Of a stretch of DNA of 64,000 bases, positions 25,373-36,495 are shown piece after piece. The position numbers were made by a program, and so were the translations under genes. The notes beneath the pieces were generated by a model. The model was not told the origin of the DNA and searched no databases. It saw only the letters and a list, made by a program, of their open reading frames with translations. Location: positions 930,001 through 994,000 of the forward strand of contig NZ_JABFTX010000001.1 in the NCBI RefSeq assembly GCF_021404305.1. Direction: 5' to 3'. How positions within the stretch are numbered: the stretch's first letter is position 1; each line of letters begins with the position of its first letter. This stretch comes from Billgrantia ethanolica (GTDB lineage Bacteria; Pseudomonadota; Gammaproteobacteria; Pseudomonadales; Halomonadaceae).

Positions 25373-26194
25373 TCAATCGGGCTGACAGCTCGGGCAGCGA
25401 TAGAGCCGACGCGAGGCGACCGTCAGTCGCTCGATCGGCGTGCCGCAGGCGTGACACGGCCTGCCGTCGCGCTCGAACACGGCAAAGCGACTGAGCCGTC
25501 GGCTCTCGCCGTGCCGCCTGGCAGCGACCGCCCACTCGCCGCGGTTGGTCACGCCGGCCTGTTCGTAGGCCTGTCGCGTCACGGCGAGGATGGTACGCGC
25601 CAGCTCTTGCAGTCGCACGGCGCTCAGGTCGGCGACCCGGGCCGTGGGCGACAGCCCGGCGAAGAACAGGATTTCGGAGCGCAGGTAGTTGCCGATGCCG
25701 GCGAAAGGTGCCTGATCGAGCAGCAGCCCGCCCAGCCGACGGCGCACGAAGCGCGGCTCGCTCAAACGCGCCACGGCCTGCTCCGGCGTGACCCCGTGGG
25801 TCAGCAGGTCGGGGCCGAGACGGGAGAGAAACGGATGCTCGGCGAGCCGCTCGGCCGGCCACAGCGAGACGTCCGAGGCGCTGTAGAGGCTGGCCGAGCG
25901 TCCTTCCGCCGTCAGCCGTACGCGCAGCGAGCGCTCGGTATCGGGCTCGCGTTCGGCGTCGTGGAGCTTCCATAGGCCGTAGAGCTGGTTGTGGCTGTAG
26001 AGCACGCGACCGTCGTCGAAGCGGGTCAGCAACGCCTTGCCCCAGCTGTCCACCGCCGTGACCTCTCGCCCCACCAGCGAGTCGGCCTCGGCGGCCAGTT
26101 CGGGGAAGGCGAACCACACGGACTCCAGCCGCCTGCCGGCAAGCTGCTCGTGCAGACGGTCGGCGGCACGGCGAATCTCAGGGCCTTCGGGCAT
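25373..26194 (-). CDS. nei: Endonuclease VIII (Nei), base-excision DNA glycosylase
   Basis: 273 residues. The N-terminus MPEGPEIRR supplies the catalytic Pro2 and Glu3; Lys53 (SWGKALL) matches the conserved Nei lysine. The helix-two-turn-helix region (DQAPFAGIGNYLRSEI) and C-terminal zinc finger (CHACG, CPSC) are intact. It excises oxidised pyrimidines and nicks the abasic site. It stands alone between convergent poxB and the repeat-rich spacer before uvrB. Confidence 0.93.
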   Translation of the reverse strand: MPEGPEIRRAADRLHEQLAGRRLESVWFAFPELAAEADSLVGREVTAVDSWGKALLTRFDDGRVLYSHNQLYGLWKLHDAEREPDTERSLRVRLTAEGRSASLYSASDVSLWPAERLAEHPFLSRLGPDLLTHGVTPEQAVARLSEPRFVRRRLGGLLLDQAPFAGIGNYLRSEILFFAGLSPTARVADLSAVRLQELARTILAVTRQAYEQAGVTNRGEWAVAARRHGESRRLSRFAVFERDGRPCHACGTPIERLTVASRRLYRCPSCQPD

Positions 26195-26255
26195 CCCTTT
26201 TCCTTACGATCTCAGCAACGAATCCGGCGATCATGGGCCGCTCGGGCTGATCCGC

Positions 26256-26350
26256 GGACAGGCCTGTGAGGAGGCGCTGTGAACCCATCCCTGGGCGCTA
26301 CTTTTGCCATCCCTGGCAAAAGACCTCCTCTTCGGCCTGCCCCCGGCGCC
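26256..26350 (-). repeat. Structured dispersed repeat, copy A (3' of uvrB)
   Basis: About 95 bp, homologous to 35521-35614 in opposite orientation; 31 bases in the middle are identical. It folds into outer stem P1 (26257-26264 with 26334-26341), stem P2 (26268-26274 with 26324-26330) and two hairpins sharing the loop context CCATCCCTGG (26284-26295 and 26301-26322). On the minus strand, downstream of uvrB, both loops read GGGA. It lies in the 351-bp nei-uvrB spacer, which contains no supported gene. Confidence 0.85.
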
Positions 26351-26424
26351 CCTCGCTCCGTGGCATTATGGCTCCTCGATATACGAAAGAGCATCTGTGG
26401 ATTGGCGTCGCGAGCGAAGAGAGG

Positions 26425-34932: not shown

Positions 34933-35472
34933 ATGCAAGACGCCGAAACACGCCTGCTGATCATCGATGACGACGAAATGTTCTGTCACGTGCTGTCACG
35001 CGCCCTGAGCAGGCGCGGATACGAGGTGCTGGTAGCCCACGACGCGGAGCAGGCGCTGAGCCTGGCCCGCCGCCACCGCCCCGAGCTGGCCACCCTGGAC
35101 CTCAAGCTGGAACACAGCTCGGGCCTGAAGCTGCTGCCCGAGCTGCTCGATGCGGTACCCAACTGCCGCATCGTGGTGCTGACGGGCTACTCGAGCATCG
35201 CCACCGCCGTGGAAGCGATCAAGCTCGGCGCCGTCAACTACCTGTGCAAACCGGCCGATGCCGACGAGATCCTCGCTGCCCTCGACCAGCAGCAGGGCGA
35301 TCCGGATGCCGAGGTGGCGGAATCGCCGCCCTCGATCAACCGCATCGCCTGGGAGCACATCCAGAAGGTGTTGCAGGAGCACGACGGCAACATCTCCGCC
35401 ACCGCCCGTGCCCTGGGCATGCACCGCCGCACCCTGCAGCGCAAGCTGCAGAAACGCCCGGTGCGGCGGTAG
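34933..35472 (+). CDS. regA: Response regulator, RegA/PrrA/RoxR family
   Basis: 179 residues. The receiver domain has the acidic pair in IIDDDE, phosphoacceptor Asp56 (ATLDLKL), LTGYSS and the CKPAD lysine. A short Pro-rich linker leads to a Fis-type helix-turn-helix (GNISATARALGMHRRTLQRKL), the RegA architecture. It should be phosphorylated by the adjacent kinase and control respiratory and carbon genes. GAGGA precedes the ATG by 5 nt. A structured repeat copy follows 49 bp downstream. Confidence 0.93.
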   Translation: MQDAETRLLIIDDDEMFCHVLSRALSRRGYEVLVAHDAEQALSLARRHRPELATLDLKLEHSSGLKLLPELLDAVPNCRIVVLTGYSSIATAVEAIKLGAVNYLCKPADADEILAALDQQQGDPDAEVAESPPSINRIAWEHIQKVLQEHDGNISATARALGMHRRTLQRKLQKRPVRR

Positions 35473-35520
35473 TTCTAGTCCAGTAAGGCCCTGCCCCGGC
35501 TTAGCGCCACCCAGGCAAGC

Positions 35521-35614
35521 GGCGCCGGGGACAGGTCGTAGCGGAGGTTATTTGCCAGGGAAGGCAAATATAGCGCCCAGGGATGGGTTCACAGCGCCTC
35601 CGCGAGACCTGTCG
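35521..35614 (+). repeat. Structured dispersed repeat, copy B (3' of regA)
   Basis: Homologue of 26256-26350 in the other orientation. P1 is GACAGGTC (35530) with GACCTGTC (35606); P2 is GCGGAGG (35541) with CCTCCGC (35597). Hairpins lie at 35549-35570 and 35576-35587, with GGGA in both loops on the plus strand. Relative to copy A, base pairs change on both sides in P1, P2 and the long hairpin. It fills most of the 164-bp spacer between convergent regA and bdhA. Confidence 0.85.
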
Positions 35615-35636
35615 CCGGAAAGGCCGCGAGCGTATG

Positions 35637-36410
35637 TCACTGGGCCGTCCAACCCAGATCTATATTCCAGCTCGAGCCCGTTACCGCGCCTGCCGCATCC
35701 GAGGCCAGGTAGGCCACCAGCGCCGACACTTCCTCGGGATCGATCAGGCGCTTCACCGCGGCATTCTTGAGCATGATCTGCTCGACCACGTCCTGCTCGT
35801 CCATATTGTGCAGCCGGGCCTGATCGGCGATCTGGTTCTCCACCAGCGGCGTCTTCACGTAGGCCGGACAGATGGCGTTGGCGGTGATGCCCTGGGGGCC
35901 ACCCTCCAGCGCCGCCGTCTTGGTCAACCCGATCAAGCCGTGCTTGGCGCTGATGTAGGCCGACTTGCCCGGCGAGGCGACCTGGGCATGCACCGAGGCG
36001 ATATTGACGATACGCCCCCAGCCGTTCTCGCGCATGGAAGGCCATGCGGCCTGGGTCAACAGGAAAGGCGCCGTCAGCATCAGATCGATGATCTGGCGCC
36101 ATTTGGCCTCGGGAAAGTCCTCGATGGGCGAGACGTGCTGGATCCCGGCATTGTTGACCAGGATATCGATCTTGCCGAAGCGCTTGATCGCCTCCGCCAC
36201 GGCCGCCTTGCACGCTTCACCGTCGCTGAGATCGGCCTGGAAGAACGCCGCCCCCACGGCATCGGCCTTGGCCCTGGCCTGATCATTGAAGTCGACGGCC
36301 AGCACCTGGTGACCGAGCTCGCGAAACTGATGTACCACGGCCTCGCCGATGCCGCTGGCGGTTCCCGTTACCAGGGCGACGCGTGGCACGGTAGCGGTTG
36401 CATTGCTCAT
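35637..36410 (-). CDS. bdhA: 3-hydroxybutyrate dehydrogenase
   Basis: 257-residue SDR. TGTASGIG, NNAGIQH, NIASVHAQVASP and YISAKHG are the cofactor and catalytic motifs; the His/Gln arrangement after NIAS and WNIDLGWTAQ at the end are characteristic of bacterial D-3-hydroxybutyrate dehydrogenase. It oxidises 3-hydroxybutyrate from PHB breakdown to acetoacetate, which the scoAB transferase 3 kb away could activate. ATG at 36410 follows AAGGA at 9 nt. Confidence 0.92.
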   Translation of the reverse strand: MSNATATVPRVALVTGTASGIGEAVVHQFRELGHQVLAVDFNDQARAKADAVGAAFFQADLSDGEACKAAVAEAIKRFGKIDILVNNAGIQHVSPIEDFPEAKWRQIIDLMLTAPFLLTQAAWPSMRENGWGRIVNIASVHAQVASPGKSAYISAKHGLIGLTKTAALEGGPQGITANAICPAYVKTPLVENQIADQARLHNMDEQDVVEQIMLKNAAVKRLIDPEEVSALVAYLASDAAGAVTGSSWNIDLGWTAQ

Positions 36411-36495
36411 GGGGTAAATCCTTCTACACGAGGATGGAAGACCTGAATCCCAGCATAAGCCGGGGCACACGGCCACGACCAGCCCACCGGAAGTC

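What the first reader, a model, noticed from the sequence alone, without database searches (positions are those of the whole stretch)
26256..26350. Structured intergenic repeat with compensatory changes between two copies
Seen directly: about 95 bp at 26256-26350 and 35521-35614 (opposite strands) share a 31-base identical block. Where they differ, both sides of a stem change together. In the long hairpin C-G and T-A pairs become T-A and A-T. In P2 an A-T pair becomes C-G. In P1 a C-G pair becomes T-A. Four covarying pairs across three stems between only two copies is strong evidence that the fold is selected, not the sequence. Both copies lie 3' of a gene on the same relative strand (uvrB, regA). 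I believe similar spacers are common in Halomonas, but I cannot verify that here.
Basis: seen in the sequence. Interest (0 to 1): 0.75.

Follow-up and report, generated by a model that had tools for sequence, protein, structure and literature searches.

The report
Dispersed twin-hairpin RNA repeat, CsrA-like loops
A 116-base folded RNA repeat, present in dozens of copies in Halomonas-type genomes and found in many other gamma-proteobacteria, carries two hairpin loops that match the docking site of the global regulator CsrA, so it may be a large, largely uncatalogued set of CsrA-binding sites.

Summary
In detail: two ~116-nt copies (26240-26355 minus; 35516-35630 plus) share the 31-nt block, and all four reported pair changes are compensatory. 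They belong to a repeat family: 26 strong copies plus variants in this genome, hits in 84 of 90 same-genus genomes, 89 of 293 of the order, 36 of 369 of the class (capped, lower bounds). In 21 own copies, 17 of 36 pairs show compensatory changes (0 of 500 shuffles). The key feature lies on the strand opposite to the one first read: two hairpins whose loops are CANGGANG. In 131 unique Halomonadaceae elements, change in both loops is almost confined to the two N positions, the CsrA/RsmA recognition pattern; the GGAs mostly lie 22-24 nt apart. In four Halomonas genomes tandem copies are sense to the upstream gene 73:22, but across the class there is no significant strand bias (36:29). Closest known: TwoAYGGAY (RF01731), predicted to bind CsrA; this element does not reach its cut-off. 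Best reading: a twin CsrA docking site carried in mRNA 3' regions. Binding is inferred from sequence; there are no protein or expression data.

The parts
26240..26355 (-). element copy 1, full extent (outer stem to outer stem), sense in the uvrB-nei interval
   Evidence: R1 match 131.8 bits, E 7e-29; also L036
26301..26322 (-). hairpin 1 of copy 1; loop core CAGGGATG at 26308-26315 (read on minus)
   Evidence: coordinates counted by hand
26284..26295 (-). hairpin 2 of copy 1; loop core CAGGGATG at 26286-26293 (read on minus)
   Evidence: coordinates counted by hand
35516..35630 (+). element copy 2, full extent, between the regA-like gene and a convergent dehydrogenase gene
   Evidence: R1 match 129.5 bits, E 2.5e-28; also L037
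35549..35570 (+). hairpin 1 of copy 2; loop core CAGGGAAG at 35556-35563
   Evidence: coordinates counted by hand
35576..35587 (+). hairpin 2 of copy 2; loop core CAGGGATG at 35578-35585
   Evidence: coordinates counted by hand
   Evidence: ORF list; matches in 31 of 31 same-genus genomes
25373..26194 (-). Fpg/Nei-type DNA glycosylase gene downstream of copy 1 (named by reading the sequence, no family search)
   Evidence: ORF list, gene call
34933..35472 (+).
   Evidence: ORF list; matches in 31 of 31 same-genus genomes
35637..36476 (-). SDR-type dehydrogenase gene (3-hydroxybutyrate dehydrogenase-like, named by reading), convergent with copy 2
   Evidence: ORF list

Best explanation
The repeat is an RNA element that acts as a twin docking site for the CsrA/RsmA dimer. 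Shown: it is a dispersed family; its stems covary; its two hairpin loops are conserved as CANGGANG with change almost only at the two N positions; the GGAs are mostly held 22-24 nt apart; in the Halomonas genomes examined it mostly sits in the sense direction a median of about 26 nt behind a stop codon; the genome has one csrA gene. Inferred: when the upstream gene is transcribed past its stop codon, the element folds in the mRNA 3' region and one CsrA dimer bridges the two loops. This would mark or protect that 3' end, or withdraw CsrA from other targets; with 20 to 57 copies in the four genomes examined, the sum could act as a distributed CsrA buffer. Which of these outcomes occurs is not shown.
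For: Loops: in 131 unique elements from Halomonadaceae genomes loop 1 is C131 A131 N(T69 G59 A3) G131 G131 A130 N(T114 A15 G1 C1) G131; loop 2 is C129 A130 N(G118 A8 T5) G131 G130 A131 N(T61 A32 G29 C9) G131. A review passage gives the CsrA SELEX consensus as RUACARGGAUGU with the GGA in a hairpin loop (PMC4347634); 8 of 153 unique elements hold that 12-mer exactly and 27 hold TACANGGANGTA. Covariation: 17 of 36 pairs, 0 of 500 shuffles, and slid structures give at most 5 pairs. Class-wide, hairpin 1 was not part of the search pattern, yet a C(N)GGA(N)G-like motif stands in the hairpin 1 stretch of 115 of 126 sites against 17 of 122 in a control stretch farther upstream; with a motif-blind hairpin finder the apex holds GGA in 69 of 82 sites against 326 of 1577 in shuffles; stem pairs next to the loop are WC or GU in 59-66 of 68 per variable position against 41-63% in shuffles. 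Spacing 22-24 nt in 106 of 121 class-wide sites with an upstream GGA; CsrA bridges sites 10-63 nt apart, best above 18 (PMC7652899, one passage). Strand: apart from two pairs that are G-U in over 90% of elements, G-U occurs 84 times against 29 A-C on the GGA strand. Context: sense to antisense tandem copies 21:2 in the own genome, 11:6, 26:9 and 15:5 in three relatives, together 73:22; divergent gaps hold 5 of 115. One csrA gene, 94.6 bits, with an ordinary CsrA sequence by reading.
Against: No binding, expression or RNA-seq data. Class-wide there is no significant strand preference (36:29 tandem, p 0.46; 15 of 103 fully classified sites in divergent gaps; 20:20 and 14 of 68 in the first 80 of 119 loci), so sense 3' transcription cannot be general; the Halomonadaceae records in the first 80 gave 7:5 with 6 divergent, at odds with the four genomes. 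Copies come and go: a regex for the short form found the element near uvrB in 3 of 30 genomes and near regA in 3 of 30 (one of these antisense), the own genome counted in both; one further genome at each site has the long-loop form. Across the class hairpin 1 shows no G-U over A-C excess with a strand-neutral finder (21 vs 27). Orthologous loci were not removed from the strand counts.
Confidence: 0.58

Rival explanations
1. A selfish or mobile DNA repeat (REP/MITE-like). The hairpins serve as single-stranded DNA substrates for copying or moving, and the CsrA-like loops are incidental or secondary.
For: Dozens of copies; presence differs between related genomes at the same place; loop 1 differs between a 6-nt and a roughly 86-nt form at orthologous sites and other genera have a different ~50-nt insert at the same loop point; no significant strand bias class-wide; 9 pairs of copies less than 1.5 kb apart among the 130 copies of three genomes, some inverted.
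Against: No Y1/REP-type transposase domain (PF01797) in the own genome, 0 of 1, while 5 of 14 control genomes ring; other transposase families were not searched. A good share of copies is kept at orthologous places: 10, 11 and 4 of 28 own copies have an element beside the orthologous neighbour gene in G088, G052 and G042 (only 91 of 130 copies in those genomes were covered). Change confined to the N positions of CANGGANG is not predicted.
Confidence: 0.2
2. A generic 3'-end mRNA hairpin (exonuclease barrier or processing site) that does not need CsrA.
For: Median distance to a stop codon 26 nt on the sense side and 25 nt on the antisense side in three genomes; very stable fold; sense excess in the Halomonas genomes examined.
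Against: A plain barrier needs no invariant loop octamers, fixed GGA spacing or conserved UUCACNGCG segment. Not itself an intrinsic terminator: TTTT in the 20 nt after it in 2 of 155 sites. A terminator-like match does lie 10 nt beyond copy 2, at 35640-35657 plus (5 pairs, shuffles 0.1); none near copy 1.
Confidence: 0.13
3. Independent small RNA genes of the RsmY/RsmZ kind, each with its own promoter.
For: Would explain the lack of strand bias class-wide. TANNNT stands in the 60 nt upstream of 33 of 155 sites against 9 in a stretch 100-160 nt upstream, though that stretch is mostly coding.
Against: No sigma-70-like promoter match near either window copy; T-runs right after the element are rare (2 of 155); copies sit tightly behind stop codons. 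Other promoter types were not looked for.
Confidence: 0.05

Closest known systems
TwoAYGGAY RNA (Rfam RF01731)
   Same: Two adjacent hairpins with ANGGAN-type loops inside a long closing stem; R1 finds the RF01731 hit L025 at the same place (55.8 bits); predicted to bind CsrA by the RMfam authors (PMC4333381, passages read).
   Different: No RF01731 match at E<=0.001 in 25 same-genus genomes including this one. The RF01731 consensus has a long symmetric second hairpin, whereas here it is short with a conserved 3' UUCACNGCG segment. RF01731 is not described as an interspersed repeat in the passages read.
CsrB/CsrC, RsmX/Y/Z CsrA-sequestering sRNAs
   Same: GGA motifs in hairpin loops, paired for a CsrA dimer.
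   Different: Those are one to a few separate genes with promoter and terminator and many GGAs (recalled; Pf1-Pf3 in PMC11882849 passages are of this kind); this is a repeat in dozens of places with two GGA loops and no promoter or terminator found at it.
REP/BIME and MITE repeats (incl. ERIC)
   Same: Interspersed, palindromic, intergenic, near 3' ends (recalled).
   Different: Loop octamers conserved as a protein-recognition motif; no Y1 transposase domain in the own genome.
Ysr224 (RF02770), Yersinia sRNA
   Same: A weak full-length match to the opposite strand, two hairpins spaced alike (19.0 and 21.2 bits).
   Different: Far below the gathering score of 70; its loops are read on the other strand.

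Membership tests
TwoAYGGAY (RF01731) | score at or above the family's gathering cut-off | tested here: not met
   0 of 25 same-genus genomes (own included), 2 of 13 other genomes of the order (up to 54 candidates scored per genome); no RF01731 hit even at E 10 for copy 1 or E 5 for four other own copies; none at gathering in 18 loci of named genomes
TwoAYGGAY (RF01731) | two hairpins with ANGGAN loops in one closing stem | tested here: met
   tandem-GA-like hairpin 1 stems, a feature named in PMC4333381, in 5 of 87 class-wide sites
CsrA/RsmA-binding RNA | ANGGA core in hairpin loops, repeated at bridging distance | tested here: met
CsrA/RsmA-binding RNA | measured binding to CsrA | not testable with these tools
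   no experiment possible
Csr sRNA (RsmZ type, RF00166) | family score | tested here: not met
   the two RF00166 matches in the own genome are other loci and below the cut-off (8 of 14 control genomes also ring at that loose E-value)
Csr sRNA (RsmZ type, RF00166) | own promoter and terminator | tested here: inconclusive
   no sigma-70-like promoter at the two window copies, T-run in 2 of 155 sites; consensus scans only
REP/RAYT system | a Y1 (REP-associated) transposase in the genome | tested here: not met
   PF01797 0 of 1; a GTAG foot (recalled) is not conserved in the alignment A1
intrinsic terminator | T-run directly after the stem | tested here: not met
   2 of 155 sites have TTTT in the next 20 nt; a separate terminator-like match lies 10 nt beyond copy 2

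The most novel reading that the evidence does not exclude
A gamma-proteobacterial 'distributed sponge': dozens of interspersed twin-GGA elements, carried in mRNA 3' regions, together titrate CsrA, so that free CsrA is set by the summed transcription of many unrelated genes rather than only by dedicated Csr sRNAs; the repeat spreads and is kept because each new copy adds a CsrA site.
Probability: 0.25. Interest if true: 0.85.

Novelty: new variant of a known kind. Interest (0 to 1): 0.68.

Why it matters
CsrA is one of the main post-transcriptional regulators of gamma-proteobacteria, and its RNA antagonists are thought of as a few dedicated sRNAs. A structured repeat that multiplies good CsrA sites in tens of copies per genome would change how CsrA titration is modelled, would put CsrA at 3' ends of mRNAs, and would give a function to a repeat class that mostly passes unannotated: at its gathering scores Rfam 15 names nothing at it in the window or in 18 loci from named genomes of different genera.

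Tried and rejected
Rfam gathering scan of the window: nothing. ARAGORN: nothing. Replication-strand bias: none in G052 (p 0.63) and G042 (p 0.996), weak in G088 (p 0.04, 20 copies). RsmZ model: only sub-threshold loci, see Noticed in passing. The sRNA-Xcc1 idea (recalled) was dropped: no such Rfam hit at gathering in the 18 loci scanned, one of them Xanthomonas; its papers were seen as a listing only. A class-wide covariance model was not built; the alignment A2 made for it was not used further.

Literature: searches (open PMC set; listings cut at 5 to 15 rows, up to 651 papers held the terms) listed no paper that I recognised as describing this repeat; only listings and the passages named in the Full report section were seen, so a claim that it is undescribed would be weak.

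Rows dropped: L010 and L012 (long-loop forms) left out of A1 (21 of 23 copies). Nine of 140 unique 116-nt elements left out of the loop count because neither GGA stood at the expected column, so loop conservation is partly conditioned on that; elements of other lengths were not counted. One of 20, 15 of 57 and 23 of 53 copies of G088, G052 and G042 were not covered by fetched DNA, and 1, 1 and 2 covered ones fell inside a called gene. Searches used the 80 listed of the 119 loci that one search left; one search repeated the main counts on all 119 (127 sites). Five of 87 class sites lacked flanks; 19 of 87 and 23 of 127 had no called gene on one side, and one of 127 fell inside a called gene. 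The own-genome context count has 28 loci: 26 strong copies and two long-form or partial ones (L052, L054); opposite-strand duplicates (L053, L055) were left out. My gene caller is a home-made codon-usage one trained on 11 window ORFs or on long ORFs of the loci.

Full report
WHAT IS THERE. The two copies and the four compensatory changes are as reported. A 22-nt core pattern finds 23 places in the 4.57-Mb genome with up to 3 mismatches, against 0 for the reversed control. Twenty-one of them align over about 116 nt (L010 and L012 left out, long-loop forms). The consensus fold has 36 pairs: an outer stem, a second stem, hairpin 1 and hairpin 2. 97.7% of cells are paired and 17 pairs have at least one change on both sides, against a shuffled mean of 7.7 (0 of 500 reach it); with partners slid by 1-3 columns at most 5 pairs do. 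A covariance model R1 built from them finds 26 copies above 85 bits in the genome, then a few weaker or long-form ones and, below 40 bits, mostly reverse-strand echoes of the same copies. In the window it finds only the two reported copies, 26240-26355 minus and 35516-35630 plus, and an echo.

DISTRIBUTION. R1 hits (E<=0.001): 84 of 90 genomes of the genus, many at the 41-candidate ceiling; 89 of 293 in the order, 43 of 118 genera; 36 of 369 in the class, 34 of 272 genera. These three searches used strict filters and few candidates per genome, so they are lower bounds. Fuller searches gave 20, 57 and 53 copies in G088, G052 and G042 at E<=1e-8. An exact 21-base pattern for hairpin 2 and its 3' segment hit at least 119 stretches in named genomes (the scan stopped at its limit; 80 listed): Halomonas, Billgrantia, Vreelandella, Onishia, Marinobacter, Microbulbifer, Stenotrophomonas, Xanthomonas, Shewanella, Alteromonas, Moritella, Rheinheimera, Sodalis, Methylomicrobium, Pseudomonas and others. 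'Halomonas' below is shorthand for the window's genus.

THE LOOPS. Read on the strand that is coding for uvrB and for the regA-like gene, both hairpin loops are CANGGANG. In 131 unique elements from genomes of the window's family the six fixed letters hold in 129-131 cases each in both loops, and nearly all change is at the two N positions (9 of 140 elements out of register were left out). In 82 class-wide sites hairpin 1, which the search pattern did not constrain, has GGA at its apex in 69 by a motif-blind finder (shuffled control 326 of 1577). Of the 13 misses, five (L261, L275, two in L281, L289) do hold GGA by eye in the listing, four (L245, L250, L276, L285) look like inserted forms and four (L226, L227, L235, L277) lack it. 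On all 119 loci a C(N)GGA(N)G-like motif is in the hairpin 1 stretch of 115 of 126 sites, against 17 of 122 for a stretch farther upstream. Hairpin 1 stems vary freely but stay paired. Outer arms are copy-specific (80 of 82 distinct 12-mers) yet complementary: score >=15 in 41 of 82 against 0 of 405 mismatched pairs. GGA-to-GGA distance is 22-24 in 106 of 121 sites with an upstream GGA (75 of 84 in the first 80 loci). A pair at pattern positions 4 and 22 is C-G in 52 of 87, G-A in 30 and G-C in 1.

WHY CsrA. In a review passage (PMC4347634) the CsrA SELEX consensus is RUACARGGAUGU with ACA and GGA fully conserved and the GGA in a hairpin loop; in another (PMC7652899, one passage) a CsrA dimer bridges two sites 10-63 nt apart, best above 18 nt. 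The element fits both, although its loops allow any base at N and most copies match the 12-mer only in its core: 8 of 153 unique elements contain it exactly. The genome has one csrA, whose product is an ordinary CsrA by reading. RMfam's authors predicted CsrA binding for TwoAYGGAY (PMC4333381, passages); Weinberg et al. list TwoAYGGAY as probably an RNA, in human gut, gamma-proteobacteria and Clostridiales (PMC2864571, passages). A CsrA target-modelling preprint that includes Halomonas hydrothermalis has no occurrence of 'TwoAYGGAY', 'intergenic' or 'repeat element' (PMC12889724, passages).

WHICH STRAND, AND TRANSCRIBED HOW. On the GGA strand G-U pairs outnumber A-C mismatches 84 to 29, leaving out two positions that are G-U in more than 90% of elements; in the class-wide sample hairpin 1 shows no such excess (21 vs 27). 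In the own genome 25 of 28 copies have a same-strand gene directly upstream; tandem copies are 21 sense to 2 antisense. In G088, G052 and G042 the figures are 11:6, 26:9 and 15:5. Together 73:22, binomial p 1.5e-7, not corrected for orthologous copies; divergent gaps hold 5 of 115 copies against 6 of 22 gaps of at least 110 nt in the window. Thirty further genus loci (one best-scoring copy per genome, three of them also in the counts above) gave 21:7, six loci of other genera of the family 4:2. Against this, 22 order-level loci gave 5:7 with one unclassified, and the class-wide sample 36:29 with 23 convergent and 15 divergent among 127 sites (20:20, 14 and 14 in the first 80 loci). So the sense 3' placement is shown for these Halomonas genomes, not for the family. 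No promoter-like match lies at either window copy, and T-runs right after the element are rare (2 of 155); a terminator-like match lies 10 nt beyond copy 2 at 35640-35657, which would fit an mRNA ending there.

GAIN, LOSS AND INNER EXCHANGE. Near the stop of uvrB a regex for the short form found the element in G000, G008 and G088 of 30 genomes; G011 has the long-loop form at the same place; two others (G078, G001) had a regex match more than 400 nt downstream that was not examined; the rest showed none. Downstream of regA it is in G000 and G005, antisense in G018, and in the long-loop form in G008, whose RegA is 99% identical; the flanks of G000 and G008 match, so the inner ~80-nt domain was gained or lost recently while the stem around it stayed the same. 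Ten, 11 and 4 of 28 own copies have an element beside an orthologous gene in G088, G052 and G042. The family thus shows both retention and turnover.

MECHANISM. I take the element to be a CsrA docking pair carried by read-through mRNA. Shown: family, fold, loop motif, spacing, sense excess in Halomonas. Inferred: binding, bridging by one dimer, and the outcome (3'-end protection, recruitment or titration). The main rival is a mobile DNA repeat; it explains turnover and the lack of class-wide strand bias, but not change restricted to the N positions of the loops, and no Y1 transposase was found (other families not searched).

OTHER PAPERS SEEN. Passages only: PMC9788540 (Alcanivorax Csr-related sRNAs), PMC2267715 (stem-loop repeat families), PMC11882849 (Pseudoalteromonas Csr sRNAs). 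None of the passages seen describes this repeat.

On recount the GGA spacing figure was mended (75 of 84, not of 85), the copy range (20-57), the terminator-like match beyond copy 2 was added, and the class-wide counts were repeated on all 119 loci.

Noticed in passing
L173 (regA site of G008), L145 (uvrB site of G011), own copies L010/L054, L012, L052: Hairpin 1 exists in a short form (6-nt loop) and a long form whose loop holds about 86 nt with a further GCCATGGATGGC hairpin; close relatives differ at the same site.
   Followed up: partly
L202-L209 (other genera of the family): A different insert of about 50 nt sits at the same loop point (mostly CCATGG^ATGG) and in most carries CCATCCATGG, i.e. 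a hairpin of the inverted sense, as if loop 1 were an insertion hot spot.
   Followed up: partly
L394 (G000:C10:170145-170256 plus): A locus with a weak RF00166 match (18.6 bits, below the cut-off; control genomes ring as well) that shows 7 GGAs and a terminator-like end by eye: candidate dedicated Csr sRNA of this genome.
   Followed up: no
L393 (G000:C40:50103-50208 minus): Sub-threshold RF00166 match (23.8 bits) with a CCCAGGGATGGG hairpin, an AAGGAGGATGG segment and a strong terminator-like hairpin.
   Followed up: no
L241, L261, L278, L281, L284; G088, G052 and G042 lists: Some copies come in close pairs, tandem or inverted: 9 pairs less than 1.5 kb apart among 130 copies, two of them only about 130 nt apart in G052.
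   Followed up: partly
L261 (two), L275, L281, L289: Hairpin 1 stems with tandem GA-like mismatches in 5 of 87 class-wide sites, a feature reported for TwoAYGGAY.
   Followed up: partly
G001, G047, G053, G069, G070, G075: Six of 90 genomes of the genus had no R1 hit; whether they carry a diverged form was not tested.
   Followed up: no
window 35640-35657 plus: Terminator-like match just beyond copy 2, inside the 3' end of the convergent dehydrogenase gene.
   Followed up: no
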